Below are positions 17,404 through 28,731 of a DNA stretch of 33,984 bases, in pieces (within the stretch, counting starts at the first letter, position 1; each line of letters opens with the position of its first letter). The translations under genes were made by a program, and so were the position numbers. A model generated the notes under the pieces. The model was given only the letters and a program-made list of their open reading frames with translations, searched no databases and was not told where the DNA came from. Source of the stretch: Gammaproteobacteria bacterium (GTDB lineage: Bacteria > Pseudomonadota > Gammaproteobacteria > Poriferisulfidales > Poriferisulfidaceae); contig JAPONY010000089.1 of assembly GCA_026713705.1 (NCBI GenBank), positions 1 to 33,984 on the forward strand, read 5' to 3'.

Positions 17404-18672
17404 ATGAAAGTCAATCGTACCATCCGCTATCGCCTGCACCCGGGCTCTGCAAGGAAGAATCAGCAATTGCACGGCACCGCCGGAGCCTGCCGATTCGTCT
17501 GGAATCATATGGTCGGGAAACTCAAGGATGACTATGAATATTATGGAGAATGCAACTTTTATTACATGTCCACGAAGACAATCCCTACGCAAGGACTAGG
17601 CCGAACTTTCACGGTCCTCCGGCGGCACAGTTACAAGTGGTTGCAAGGCTATTCGGCGTATATCGTCAAGAGTTCGCTCCAGCCCATCGAGACGACCTAC
17701 AGGGAATTCTTCAAGGATGTGGAAGCAGGCGGGAAACTAAACCGCAAGCCGCCGCGGTTCCACGGAAAATGGACGACCCCGCCAAGTTTTCCGATCAATT
17801 ACGTGTCGGCGAAGGTGTCGGGCGACAGCCTGTACGTGCAGAAGGTCGGCTGGATGAAGATGGCGGGTAACAATCCGTATCCGGACGGCGAGTTCAAGTC
17901 TGGCCGGGTCAAGTGTGAATGCGGGAACTGGTATGCCTACCTGACCTATGAAGTTCAGGCAGAAGCGAGTCTTCCGCACAGCATCCGGGAGGTGGGCATC
18001 GACCGGAACGTGTCGGACGGCAACTGGGCGGTGCTGTCGGACGGCACCAGGCACGGAGGCCCCGACCTTGAGAAGAAGGTCGCCCGGCGCAAGCGATACC
18101 AGCGCAAGTTGGCACGGCAGGTGAAAGGGAGCAACCGGCGAAAGGTTACGAAACTCAGGCTACAGAAGGCGTTCCGGGCGGAACGCTTCGCCCGGCTGAA
18201 CTGGGCACACCATGTCAGCAAGGACATTGCTTCGCGGTACGACGTGGCCTACATAGAGAAATTGAACATCCGAGGCATGACGAAGTCCGCCAAAGGCACC
18301 AAAGAGAAACCCGGCAAGCACGTGAAAGCGAAATCCGGCCTGAACCGCCAGATCCTCGCCAGCGCATGGGGTACGCTGGAGGTGTGCCTGAACTACAAGG
18401 CAGAAGTCCGCAAGGTGCATCCGGCGTACACCAGCCAGACCTGCCACCAGTGCGGGCATGTCGATAAGAAGAATAGAAAAGGAACAGAATTCAAGTGCAC
18501 CGAATGCGGGCACGCGGACGATGCGGACGTGAACGCCGCATTGAACATATTGGCCTTCGGGAATGGGGCGACTGGACGTGGAGGTGGCGACACCGGCGGG
18601 GCATCCTGCCACAGTCGGCCTGTGAAGCGTCAAGAAATGGGCAATGAATCCCTTGCGGATTTTGCTACATAA
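17404..18672 (+). CDS. tnpB: TnpB / OrfB-type RNA-guided nuclease
   Basis: RuvC-I GIDRN, RuvC-II VAYIEKLNIRGM, zinc ribbon CHQCGHV...FKCTECGH, RuvC-III DADVNAALNIL; catalytic D/E/D apparently intact. Confidence 0.92.
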   Translation: MKVNRTIRYRLHPGSARKNQQLHGTAGACRFVWNHMVGKLKDDYEYYGECNFYYMSTKTIPTQGLGRTFTVLRRHSYKWLQGYSAYIVKSSLQPIETTYREFFKDVEAGGKLNRKPPRFHGKWTTPPSFPINYVSAKVSGDSLYVQKVGWMKMAGNNPYPDGEFKSGRVKCECGNWYAYLTYEVQAEASLPHSIREVGIDRNVSDGNWAVLSDGTRHGGPDLEKKVARRKRYQRKLARQVKGSNRRKVTKLRLQKAFRAERFARLNWAHHVSKDIASRYDVAYIEKLNIRGMTKSAKGTKEKPGKHVKAKSGLNRQILASAWGTLEVCLNYKAEVRKVHPAYTSQTCHQCGHVDKKNRKGTEFKCTECGHADDADVNAALNILAFGNGATGRGGGDTGGASCHSRPVKRQEMGNESLADFAT

Positions 18673-18674: not shown

Positions 18675-18678
18675 CCCA

Positions 18679-24859: not shown

Positions 24860-25795
24860 ATGTCTGTCCTGATTTGCGGCTCTCTAGCCTACGACACCAT
24901 CATGCGGTTCGATGGCCGCTTCAAGGAAAACATCCTTCCGGATGCGACCGACCACTTGAACGTTTCGTTCCTGGCCGCGCACATGCGCCGGGAATTCGGG
25001 GGGTGTGCCGGGAATATCGCCTACAACCTGAGTTTATTGGGCGTGACCGGCTACCCGATGGCGACGGTGGGCCGGGACTTCCAGGACTACGCCACGTGGA
25101 TGGATGGAAAGGGGGTTTCGCGGAGCCGGGTGAAGGAACTGGAAGGCATGTTCACGTCCCAGGCGTTCATTTCGACTGACCTGGACGACAATCAGATCAC
25201 GCTGTTCCATCCAGGCGCGATGGATTTCTGCCACGAGCAGGAAGTGGATTCGACCGATGTACGCCTGGGCTTGATTTCTCCCGAGGGTCGTACCGGCATG
25301 ATCCAGCATGCGGAGCAGATGGCAGAAGCCAACATTCCCTTCCTTTTTGATCCAGGACAGGGGATGCCGATGTTCCAGAAAGAGGACTTCCTGCGTTTCG
25401 TAGAGCAGGCAACCTGGGCGGCGTTCAACGGTTTTGAGGCAGAGATGATGCAGAAGAAGAGCGAACTGACAATTGAGCAGTTAGCGGAGCGGCTCGAAGC
25501 CGTAATCGTGACACATTCCGAACGTGGCTCCTGCATCTATCGGAAAGGCCAGCCGATGTTGGAGATCCCAGTGGTATCGGTGGCGGAGGACGTGGATCCG
25601 ACAGGATGCGGCGACGCATACCGGGCCGGACTGTTGTACGGTGTCCTGAATGACATGGACTGGGAGACCTGCGGGCGTTTGGGTTCACTGATGGGGGCCT
25701 GCAAAGTGCAGCATCAGGGTGCGCAAAACCATACCCTGACCCTAGAGGAAATAACGGAGAGCTTCAGGGAGGAGTTTGGCTATTCTCCGGAATAG
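24860..25795 (+). CDS. PfkB-family carbohydrate/adenosine kinase
   Basis: FGGCAGNIAYNLSLLG and C-terminal DPTGCGDAYRAGLLYG PfkB signature. Confidence 0.9.
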   Translation: MSVLICGSLAYDTIMRFDGRFKENILPDATDHLNVSFLAAHMRREFGGCAGNIAYNLSLLGVTGYPMATVGRDFQDYATWMDGKGVSRSRVKELEGMFTSQAFISTDLDDNQITLFHPGAMDFCHEQEVDSTDVRLGLISPEGRTGMIQHAEQMAEANIPFLFDPGQGMPMFQKEDFLRFVEQATWAAFNGFEAEMMQKKSELTIEQLAERLEAVIVTHSERGSCIYRKGQPMLEIPVVSVAEDVDPTGCGDAYRAGLLYGVLNDMDWETCGRLGSLMGACKVQHQGAQNHTLTLEEITESFREEFGYSPE

Positions 25796-26454
25796 GCTCC
25801 GTTCAGGCTGATGATTTTCCAATCCTGTTCCTGTGCGTGGGCGCGCAGGGACGGGTCCGGGTCCACCGCTACCGGGTGGTCGACGAATTCCAGGAGCGGG
25901 ATGTCGTTGAACGAATCGGAGTATCCCCAGGTTTCTCCAAGCCGGATTCCTTCTTGTTCTGCCCAGGCTTGAATTCGTTTCGGCTTGTCGGCGGCGAAAC
26001 AGGGTGAATCAAGCAGTTCTCCGGTGTACTGTCCGGCCCGCATCTCGGGCCGTGGCGCGATCAGGGTCGGGATATCCAGGGTCTGCACGATCGGTTCCGC
26101 GATGAAGGCATTGGTCGAGGTGACGACTATTTGCCGCAGGCCGCGTTCGCGGTGCTTCGCAATCAACCGTTGAGCCTGGGGTCGCAGGGAAGGGTGGATT
26201 CGGGTTTCCATGAACTGCGTGCGAAGTTCTTCTAGCCGCTGCCCGTCAATTTGTCCGAGAGGAGCCAGAACGAACTTCAAATACGCAACCGGGTCCAAGG
26301 TTCCACTATGGTAGTCGTTGTAGAAGGCTTGGTTGCGGGTACGGTAGGCATCCCCGTCGATTTCCCCGGAGTCTGCCAGGAATTGTCCCCACTCGTAATC
26401 GCTGTCACAGTTGATCAGCGTATGATCCAGATCGTAGAGGGCGGTCGCGTTCAT
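25780..26454 (-). CDS. HAD-superfamily (IB, SerB-like) hydrolase
   Basis: MNATALYDLDHTLINCDSDYEWG, VVTSTNAFI, WGYSDSFNDIPLLEF. Start placed at 26454; the upstream extension is low complexity. Confidence 0.88.
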   Translation of the reverse strand: MNATALYDLDHTLINCDSDYEWGQFLADSGEIDGDAYRTRNQAFYNDYHSGTLDPVAYLKFVLAPLGQIDGQRLEELRTQFMETRIHPSLRPQAQRLIAKHRERGLRQIVVTSTNAFIAEPIVQTLDIPTLIAPRPEMRAGQYTGELLDSPCFAADKPKRIQAWAEQEGIRLGETWGYSDSFNDIPLLEFVDHPVAVDPDPSLRAHAQEQDWKIISLNGAYSGE

Positions 26455-26502: not shown

Positions 26503-26632
26503 ATGATGGCGAAGCAATTCCGCATTTGGGTAGGCAGTCCGACTGTGTCGTGGGATGGTGGAGGCGGAGGAGGAAGAGGCTATGAGTCGGGGGCTTTCTG
26601 GGGAACGGACCTGGACCGCAACGAGTTTATTT
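26503..26632 (+). pseudogene. 5' fragment of an EF-hand gene interrupted by the tnpB element
   Basis: MMAKQFRIWVGSPTVSWDGGGGGGRGYESGAFWGTDLDRNEFI, ending mid EF-hand loop exactly at TTTATTT (26626-26632). Confidence 0.75.
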
Positions 26633-26740
26633 GGCGCTTCACGATTTGGTGAAATCGGGGGGCGACCCCCGGTAGTTCCACGACATCGTTGACGGATCAC
26701 TGGCGGTCTCCACTAGGCATTCCATGAAGAATGCTTCCGC
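26626..26740 (-). ncRNA. Candidate omegaRNA/reRNA scaffold at 3' end of second tnpB (5' boundary unknown)
   Basis: Hairpins GCATTC-CATGAA-GAATGC (26717-26734), GGGGG-CGA-CCCCC (26658-26670) and CGATTT-GGTG-AAATCG (26642-26657) overlapping the tnpB 3' end. Confidence 0.4.
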
Positions 26741-28051
26741 TTCGTTGTCCCTTCCCCGTCCCGTCACCGGAGCGCCTCCGGCCAAGAGCCTGTTCAATCC
26801 CAGGTTCAGGATGTTCCTTGCGGCATTCGCGTCCGCATTGTCTGTGTGCCCGCAGGCCAGGCATTTGAAACGCGCCTGCTCCTTCCGGTTGTCCGCCTCC
26901 ACGTGCCCGCACTCCGCGCACGCCCGGCTGGTGTTCCGCGCCGGCACTTTGATCATGTCCCACGCCTTGTACTGACGAAAGCGGTCCACCATCCCCATGC
27001 AGGAGGATTGCGCCATCTTCCGGTTCAGCGCCGCCTTCGCCTTCACGCACCGCCCCGGCTTGTCCTTCGTCCCCCGCGCCGAGCGGCGCATCGCCTGCAC
27101 GTCCAGCACTTCCAGCACGAGATGCCCAAACCGCCGCGCCAGGTCCGCCGAGGCCTGATGGCTGAAGTCCTTCCGGATCTCCGCCGCCTTGCGCTTCGCC
27201 TTCGCCGCGCGCTGCTGCAGCCGCCGCCGGCGATTCGTGGGCTCCCACACTCCCTTGCCCGACTTCGTGCGCACCGGCTCTCCGGCGTCGTTCTTCAGTT
27301 CGGTCCACTTCCGGCGGCTCGCCCGCCACTGGTAGTGCCGGGCCCGGGCCTCGTACTTCAGGATCCGCTCGTACGGGATCCGGATGAGCTTCGTCTCCCC
27401 GCCCCATGAACCCCCGAGGTTCTCCGAGTTGCGGTCGATTCCGCAGACCCCGCCGTGCCAGCGCCAGTCCGGATCCGGTACTTCCCACAGCACCGACGCG
27501 TACCACTTGTCCAGTTCCCGGAACACCACTGCAACCCGGGCCTTGCCGCCATCCCAGGGATCGGCCCCCCGCGTGCGCGACGCCGCCTTGCGGTTCATCC
27601 GGATCCAGCCGACCTTCGGCACCCAAAGCCGTTTTTTCTGGACCTTCACGGCCTCCGGGATGGTGAACGACTCCCGGCTTCTGCTCTTGGCCTTGAAGCG
27701 GGGGAATCCGGCCGGCTTGCCGCACTTGCCCTCCCGGATCCGCCGGGAGAAATGCGCGAACGCCGCCCCTAGGGGAAACGCGCCCGTGCCGCGCACGACG
27801 GTGGCCGACAACTCCCGCAGCCATTCATTACCTTCTTTCGCCTTCAGGCGGACATACCGCTTCCCGAAATCAAACTCGGAAAACCCCGGCTTCTCCGCCT
27901 CGCCGGCCTCGAAACGCCCGTATTCCCGGATCTGGTCGGCCAGCAGTTCGTTGTAGACGAACCGGCCGGCCCCGCACAGCCGCGCGAACTCCCGCTCCTG
28001 CGTCTGGTTCGGGTACAGGCGGTAGCGGGAGGCCCGGTGCATGATATGCAA
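26639..28051 (-). CDS. tnpB: TnpB / OrfB-type RNA-guided nuclease (470 aa)
   Basis: RuvC-I CGIDRNSEN, RuvC-II HLVLEVLDVQAM, zinc ribbon CAECGHV...FKCLACGH, RuvC-III DNADANAARNIL. Confidence 0.92.
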   Translation of the reverse strand: MHIMHRASRYRLYPNQTQEREFARLCGAGRFVYNELLADQIREYGRFEAGEAEKPGFSEFDFGKRYVRLKAKEGNEWLRELSATVVRGTGAFPLGAAFAHFSRRIREGKCGKPAGFPRFKAKSRSRESFTIPEAVKVQKKRLWVPKVGWIRMNRKAASRTRGADPWDGGKARVAVVFRELDKWYASVLWEVPDPDWRWHGGVCGIDRNSENLGGSWGGETKLIRIPYERILKYEARARHYQWRASRRKWTELKNDAGEPVRTKSGKGVWEPTNRRRRLQQRAAKAKRKAAEIRKDFSHQASADLARRFGHLVLEVLDVQAMRRSARGTKDKPGRCVKAKAALNRKMAQSSCMGMVDRFRQYKAWDMIKVPARNTSRACAECGHVEADNRKEQARFKCLACGHTDNADANAARNILNLGLNRLLAGGAPVTGRGRDNEAEAFFMECLVETASDPSTMSWNYRGSPPDFTKS

Positions 28052-28134
28052 ATACTATCACGAGGCCGCGTCGCGGAGTCAGGCCGGGAGGGAAAAGCCG
28101 GATCAGTCGTTCCACACACTTCCGCGAAGAGCCG

Positions 28135-28299
28135 TTTATTTCCGAAGAAGAAGCGCAAGCGCCCACGGCGAAAGGATTACACCAGGTCTTCCACGTGGTC
28201 GACCAGAATGGCGATGGATTGGTTGGGTATTACGAGTTCTCCCACTTCCTCCGGAATCACCCGTATTACATGAAGCTCGCTGAGAAAGGCAAGGGTTGA
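28135..28299 (+). pseudogene. 3' fragment of the interrupted EF-hand gene
   Basis: In-frame FISEEEAQAPTAKGLHQVFHVVDQNGDGLVGYYEFSHFLRNHPYYMKLAEKGKG*; canonical EF-hand loop DQNGDGLVGYYE. Confidence 0.8.
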
Positions 28300-28305
28300 C
28301 GGAGC

Positions 28306-28731
28306 CTAGAACACTTCCGGGCGCAGCACTGCCAGGAGGATGACGGCAGCCAGGGCGAGGACCGGCGCCTCATTGAACCACCGGTACCAGACATGCCCAT
28401 ACCGGTTGTCTCCTCGCGCAAACCGACGCTGCAGAACGATGCACCATGCGTGGTAGCCGACCAAGACACCGATCAAGGCCAATTTAAGTTGCATCCAGCC
28501 TGCGGCGAGCAGGTCGGGCCGGTAGGCCAGGAGCCAGAACCCGAACAGAAGGGTCAGTACTCCGCCTGGGGTGGTAATGCCCCACAGCAATTTCCGCTCC
28601 ATGACGCAGAAACGTTGGAGGCTGGTCTCATCGTCGCTCATCGCGTGATAGACGAACAGGCGGGGCAGATAGAACAGGCCGGCGAACCAGGTCACCATGA
28701 AAATGAGGTGCAGCGCTTTGAGCCAGAGCAT
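28306..28731 (-). CDS. hemJ: HemJ-like protoporphyrinogen oxidase / CopD-family membrane protein
   Basis: MLWLKALHLIFMVTWFAGLFYLPRLFVYHA..., ERKLLWGITTPGGVLTLLFG, KLALIGVLVGYHAWC. Confidence 0.85.
   Translation of the reverse strand: MLWLKALHLIFMVTWFAGLFYLPRLFVYHAMSDDETSLQRFCVMERKLLWGITTPGGVLTLLFGFWLLAYRPDLLAAGWMQLKLALIGVLVGYHAWCIVLQRRFARGDNRYGHVWYRWFNEAPVLALAAVILLAVLRPEVF

What the first reader, a model, noticed from the sequence alone, without database searches (positions are those of the whole stretch)
26503..28299. EF-hand gene precisely split by a TnpB element; the ancestral gene is reconstructible to the base
Seen directly: + strand 26503-26632 encodes MMAKQFRIWVGSPTVSWDGGGGGGRGYESGAFWGTDLDRNEFI, and 28135-28299 encodes FISEEEAQAPTAKGLHQVFHVVDQNGDGLVGYYEFSHFLRNHPYYMKLAEKGKG*. 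Both share TTTATTT at the break (26626-26632, 28135-28141). Joining them through one copy gives a 95-aa in-frame ORF in which the first loop becomes DLDRNEFISEEE, with Glu at position 12, paired with the second loop DQNGDGLVGYYE. An in-frame join that completes an EF-hand loop is very unlikely by chance. The host gene would be divergent from the HAD hydrolase and convergent with hemJ. Standard gene callers would miss both fragments because the tnpB lies between them.
Basis: partly seen in the sequence, partly recalled or inferred. Interest (0 to 1): 0.78.

Follow-up and report, generated by a model that had tools for sequence, protein, structure and literature searches.

The report
Gene split by ISL3-ended TnpB element
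A small secreted calcium-binding (EF-hand) protein gene in a sponge-symbiont-like bacterium has been cut in two by a mobile element that carries the RNA-guided nuclease TnpB, and unusually this element has the ends and 8-base target duplication of a DDE-type (ISL3) insertion sequence rather than those of the transposons TnpB is known to travel with.

Summary
Window 26503-26632 and 28142-28299 are the two halves of one EF-hand gene. Four same-genus genomes carry it uninterrupted next to the same neighbours (HAD hydrolase and hemJ in three; hemJ in the fourth, where the contig ends). (1) The ancestral gene is not "reconstructible to the base": the window copy also lacks 39 nt (13 codons, in frame), the hydrophobic core of the signal peptide. 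(2) The repeat is 8 bp (GTTTATTT), a true target-site duplication. The 1501-bp insert (26633-28133) encodes only tnpB but has ISL3-type terminal inverted repeats. A same-genome copy and a congener copy show perfect 8-bp duplications, and an autonomous ISL3 with matching ends lies in the same genome. Two further tnpB lineages in the genus show the same pattern, one with IS1595 ends. So these "orphan" tnpB genes travel as passengers of non-autonomous DDE elements, a situation I found described only for eukaryotic Fanzors. Mobilisation in trans, and a guide RNA that includes the inverted repeat, are inferred, not shown.

The parts
26503..26632 (+). 5' half of the EF-hand gene (start to codon 43), lacking 39 nt (signal-peptide core) present in all four relatives
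26625..26632 (.). 8-bp target-site duplication, copy 1 (GTTTATTT)
26633..26656 (-). right-end ISL3-type terminal inverted repeat (GGCGCTTCACGATTTGGTG...); overlaps the tnpB stop codon
26633..28133 (-). inserted non-autonomous element, 1501 bp, tnpB its only substantial gene
26633..26698 (-). predicted 3' part of the TnpB guide-RNA scaffold (GATCCGTCAACGATG...GAAGCGCC), with the inverted repeat as 3' side of the terminal stem; prediction only
26639..28042 (-). tnpB; RuvC acidic residues and zinc finger present
28110..28133 (-). left-end ISL3-type terminal inverted repeat (GGCTCTTCGCGGAAGTGTGTGGAA)
28134..28141 (.). 8-bp target-site duplication, copy 2 (GTTTATTT)
28142..28299 (+). 3' half of the EF-hand gene (completes loop 1, holds loop 2, stop)
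25780..26454 (-). HAD-family hydrolase, divergent neighbour
28306..28731 (-). hemJ (UPF0093), convergent neighbour

Best explanation
A small EF-hand gene was inactivated by cut-and-paste insertion of a 1501-bp non-autonomous element. The element carries only tnpB but has terminal inverted repeats and an 8-bp target-site duplication of the ISL3 type; most likely an ISL3 (DDE) transposase supplied in trans, such as the one encoded on contig C44 of the same genome, moved it. Shown: the split gene, intact relatives, the target-site duplication, the inverted repeats, the matching autonomous ISL3, and the same architecture in other copies. Inferred: mobilisation in trans, and that tnpB persists as a functional passenger whose guide RNA ends at the element's end and reads its guide from the duplicated target and flank. 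The host gene also carries a 39-nt in-frame deletion of its signal-peptide core, made before or after the insertion.
For: Intact, syntenic homologues in four congeners and the empty site. 8/8 duplication in the window; two more copies of this element 8/8 (C59 TAATTATA, G003 TTAGTAGT) and two 7/8 (G002, G001), always at the inverted-repeat boundary. Autonomous ISL3 in the same genome (NF033550, E 5.4e-88) with ends GGCGCTTCCGGGTTTCGTGTGGAA / GGGGCTTCAGGATTCCGTGTGGAA and duplication TCCAAAAC 8/8; its left end differs by one base in 24 from that of the G003 tnpB element. tnpB is conserved: dN/dS 0.15-0.31 among seven copies. Element ends stay constant while flanks vary between copies. The EF-hand halves show no decay besides the deletion: dN/dS 0.08 against the nearest relative over the mature region, as expected if the insertion is recent.
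Against: The window element's own two repeats match each other less well than those of its relatives (its left end is of a different sub-type), so it did not pass the inverted-repeat scan by itself and rests on the 8/8 duplication plus comparison with relatives. One tnpB copy (G002 C13) has no duplication. No element carrying both the ISL3 transposase and tnpB was found. No transposition was observed. Support for the guide RNA fold is weak (mean z -1.16; covariation not above shuffles).
Confidence: 0.87

Rival explanations
1. An ordinary IS200/IS605-group or IS1341-type TnpB element inserted next to a target motif by a Y1 (HUH) TnpA; the shared TTTATTT is target motif plus coincidence.
For: The protein is TnpB, matched by generic and IS200/IS605 TnpB models; tnpB-only elements are common.
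Against: IS605-type elements make no target duplication. Here bases beyond the conserved end differ in every copy yet match 7-8 of 8 bases on the other side, and the inverted repeats match an ISL3 in the same genome.
Confidence: 0.05
2. The two ORF pieces are unrelated and the in-frame join is chance.
For: None found.
Against: Four congeners encode the joined protein with neighbours conserved.
Confidence: 0.01
3. The element is a reversible switch: precise excision restores the EF-hand gene and TnpB cuts or protects the site.
For: The join is in frame, the duplication perfect, and the coding halves show no stops or frameshifts.
Against: DDE cut-and-paste excision rarely restores a site exactly (established knowledge); the signal-peptide core is missing, so restoration would not give the relatives' protein.
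Confidence: 0.04
4. Mis-assembly joined a repeated tnpB element into an intact gene.
For: Draft genome in 98 contigs with several tnpB copies, some at contig ends.
Against: The window copy is unique in sequence (93% to the next copy) and has its own left-end type and an exact 8-bp duplication, which a mis-join would not create.
Confidence: 0.03

Closest known systems
ISL3-family insertion sequences (NF033550 transposase; 8-bp target duplication)
   Same: Terminal inverted repeats nearly identical to those of an autonomous ISL3 in the same genome, and 8-bp target duplication.
   Different: No ISL3 transposase inside; the cargo is tnpB.
IS1341-group (tnpB-only) elements of IS200/IS605
   Same: Carries tnpB alone, no tnpA.
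   Different: IS605-type elements lack inverted repeats and target duplications (stated in PMC3119063); this has both.
Fanzor1 / Fanzor2* in eukaryotic DDE transposons (PMC3627910, PMC10711439)
   Same: A TnpB-family nuclease inside an element with inverted repeats and target duplications, its guide RNA possibly including the repeat.
   Different: Bacterial host and canonical TnpB with ISL3 or IS1595 ends, not a Fanzor.
IS1595 elements with a DNA methyltransferase passenger (found here in G001 and probably G003)
   Same: Their inverted repeat (GGGAATTATGTAG...) and 8-bp duplication are shared by a second tnpB lineage in the genus.
   Different: They carry transposase and methyltransferase, not tnpB.

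Membership tests
ISL3 insertion sequence | ISL3-type terminal inverted repeats | tested here: met
   Ends compared with the autonomous ISL3 at C44; relatives have 19/24 matched repeat pairs; the window's own pair is more divergent
ISL3 insertion sequence | 8-bp target-site duplication | tested here: met
   GTTTATTT 8/8; two other copies 8/8, two 7/8
ISL3 insertion sequence | encodes its own ISL3 DDE transposase | tested here: not met
   Only tnpB inside; PF01610 not found on this contig, full-length copy on C44. Hence ISL3-like and non-autonomous, not an ISL3 proper
IS200/IS605 (incl. IS1341) or IS607 element | no target duplication, no terminal inverted repeats | tested here: not met
IS200/IS605 or IS607 element | Y1 or serine TnpA in the element | tested here: not met
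   tnpB is the only substantial gene in the 1501 bp; tnpB-only IS1341-group members also lack it
TnpB RNA-guided nuclease | TnpB domains above curated cut-off, RuvC acidic residues, zinc finger | tested here: met
   NF040570 167.8 bits vs cut-off 100; PF07282 and PF12323 over cut-off; D/E/D and C4 finger in alignment
TnpB RNA-guided nuclease | guide RNA ending at the right end; target-adjacent motif at the left | tested here: inconclusive
   Common predicted architecture but weak folding and covariation support, and no conserved motif beside the duplications; no Rfam match
EF-hand protein | EF-hand loops over curated cut-off | tested here: met
   Intact homologue: PF13499 36.1 bits vs 30

The most novel reading that the evidence does not exclude
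Bacterial tnpB genes have been captured more than once by DDE insertion sequences (ISL3 and IS1595), which move them as non-autonomous passengers and whose inverted repeat has become part of the TnpB guide RNA: an independent bacterial parallel to eukaryotic Fanzors, and an answer to how tnpB-only elements without a TnpA can spread.
Probability: 0.5. Interest if true: 0.78.

Novelty: new variant of a known kind. Interest (0 to 1): 0.62.

Why it matters
TnpB is studied as the ancestor of Cas12 and as a nuclease that helps Y1 or serine transposons keep their copies. Many tnpB genes have no tnpA beside them, and how those move is an open question (raised in PMC9956272 and PMC3119063). Here tnpB-only elements carry the ends and duplications of two DDE families with autonomous relatives in the same genus, which makes the question testable. 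If TnpB functions there, it must cope with random AT-rich targets instead of a fixed target-adjacent motif, the problem Fanzors are thought to have met in eukaryotes.

Tried and rejected
Rfam on the element: nothing above noise. Idea that the guide is the inverted repeat itself: dropped, because the predicted stem reaches into the repeat and leaves only 7-9 nt to the element's end in all three lineages, as expected if the guide starts at the flank. Covariation test of the guide-RNA stem: not above shuffles with this alignment, and folding z-scores are modest, so the repeat-in-guide-RNA idea stays a hypothesis. Search for a target-adjacent motif beside the duplication: none seen. The first inverted-repeat scan was mis-windowed and was redone. 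Class-wide search for close window-type tnpB: only the genus (2 of 369 genomes at E 1e-80); a looser search gave a tnpB element in another family (G200) with 23/24 matched repeats and an 8/8 duplication. Literature: no bacterial tnpB with ISL3 or IS1595 ends found, but subscription journals and preprints are not held.

Full report
OBSERVATION. A search of 94 related genomes with the joined protein found it uninterrupted in four genomes of the same genus (E 1.7e-51 to 2.5e-44, 76-86% identity), while the window's genome gives only the two separate halves. In the relatives the gene lies beside hemJ (90-91% identity) in all four and beside the HAD hydrolase (82-91%) in three; the fourth contig ends first. 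The nearest relative reads GCAACGAGTTTATTTGCGAAGAG at the break. The split is therefore real.

CORRECTION TO THE RECONSTRUCTION. All four relatives have 39 nt more near the start, coding for the hydrophobic core of what looks like a signal peptide (for example KRFRIWVAKALCLIATVFWVGGPAVSQDGG; window KQFRIWVGSPTVSWDGG). The window has an in-frame deletion there; in the nearest relative the lost stretch lies between two TGGGT motifs, suggesting slippage (the signal peptide is judged by eye). Removing the insert therefore does not give the relatives' protein. Outside this the coding halves show no stops or frameshifts and evolve under constraint (dN/dS 0.08 against the nearest relative over the mature region, 21 synonymous and 8 non-synonymous differences), so the insertion is probably recent.

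WHAT WAS INSERTED. The insert is 26633-28133, 1501 bp, with one substantial gene, tnpB, on the minus strand. Comparing copies in the same genome shows a constant right end (...GAAGCGCC) and a left end GGCTCTTC... or a variant, with different sequence beyond. At these boundaries sit direct repeats of 8 bp: GTTTATTT in the window, TAATTATA in the C59 copy, TTAGTAGT in G003, 7 of 8 in G002 and G001. The ends are inverted repeats of one another (19 of 24 bases in three relatives; less in the window). A complete ISL3-family element lies on contig C44 of the same genome: transposase NF033550 at E 5.4e-88, 1333 bp, inverted repeats GGCGCTTCCGGGTTTCGTGTGGAA / GGGGCTTCAGGATTCCGTGTGGAA, duplication TCCAAAAC 8/8. 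Its left end differs from that of the G003 tnpB element at one base in 24. The tnpB element is thus best read as a non-autonomous ISL3-type element carrying tnpB.

THE PATTERN IS WIDER. Other tnpB genes in the genus end the same way. A second lineage (including the other tnpB in this window, 17413-18600) has repeats GGGAATTATGTAGCAAAATC..., with duplications CAATATAC and GTATATTA (8/8) and two at 7/8. The same ends bound two larger elements with an IS1595 transposase (NF033547, E 3e-60 and 3e-59) and, in at least one, a DNA methyltransferase, with duplications TCTTGTTA and GGCCATTT, both 8/8. A third lineage has one clear case (AAAGTTTT, 8/8). Outside the genus, a tnpB element of another gammaproteobacterial family has 23 of 24 repeat bases matched and ATGAGAAT 8/8. 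Not all copies show a duplication; several have degraded ends.

HOW IT MAY WORK. Shown: structure, duplications, matching transposases, conservation of tnpB (dN/dS 0.15-0.31). Inferred: the ISL3 transposase acts in trans. For TnpB, the right ends fold in prediction so that the inverted repeat supplies the 3' side of the last stem, 7-9 nt before the element's end in all three lineages, leaving duplicated target plus flank as guide. This resembles what was described for Fanzor1 (PMC10711439), but support is weak: mean folding z about -1, and covariation is not above shuffles. No conserved motif sits beside the duplications, so any target-adjacent motif must be short or met only by chance. How TnpB benefits such an element is open.

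KNOWN CONTEXT. TnpB is described from IS200/IS605 and IS607 elements, which lack target duplications (PMC3627910, PMC3119063). TnpB-family proteins inside DDE elements are described for eukaryotic Fanzors (PMC3627910, PMC10711439). Seven searches of the open literature found no bacterial case with ISL3 or IS1595 ends; the library is incomplete, so novelty is provisional.

VERDICT. The split gene is confirmed and as such ordinary (an insertion in a small gene). The unusual part is the element type: a bacterial tnpB in DDE-type ends, seen with two transposase families in one genus.

Noticed in passing
window 17413-18600 (+), right end near 18677: A second, distantly related tnpB (35% identity) with IS1595-type ends (GGGAATTATGTAG); its left end is degraded and no target duplication was seen.
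   Followed up: partly
L145 (G003:C27) position 2720; L012: In congener G003 the right end of an IS1595-type tnpB element sits just upstream of the intact EF-hand gene, so the same locus was hit independently by a different tnpB element.
   Followed up: partly
L029 (G000:C12:818) and L030 (G000:C38:24502): Two solitary 65-bp copies of this element's left end, both stopping at the same inner base (CTCCGCGAC) with unrelated sequence beyond and no matching right end found nearby; unexplained.
   Followed up: partly
L142 (G001:C3) and L143 (G003:C2): IS1595 elements with an IS1595 transposase and an adenine-specific DNA-methyltransferase-like passenger (family match run for L142 only), with perfect 8-bp duplications.
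   Followed up: partly
L098 (G003:C16), L090: A tnpB element inserted one base away from another ISL3-type end (GGCGCTTCGAGATTTTGTGTGGAA), a possible nested or tandem insertion.
   Followed up: no
L138 (G200:C95): tnpB element in another gammaproteobacterial family with near-perfect inverted repeats (GGGAATTATATACTTAATGCCCC) and an 8/8 duplication ATGAGAAT.
   Followed up: partly
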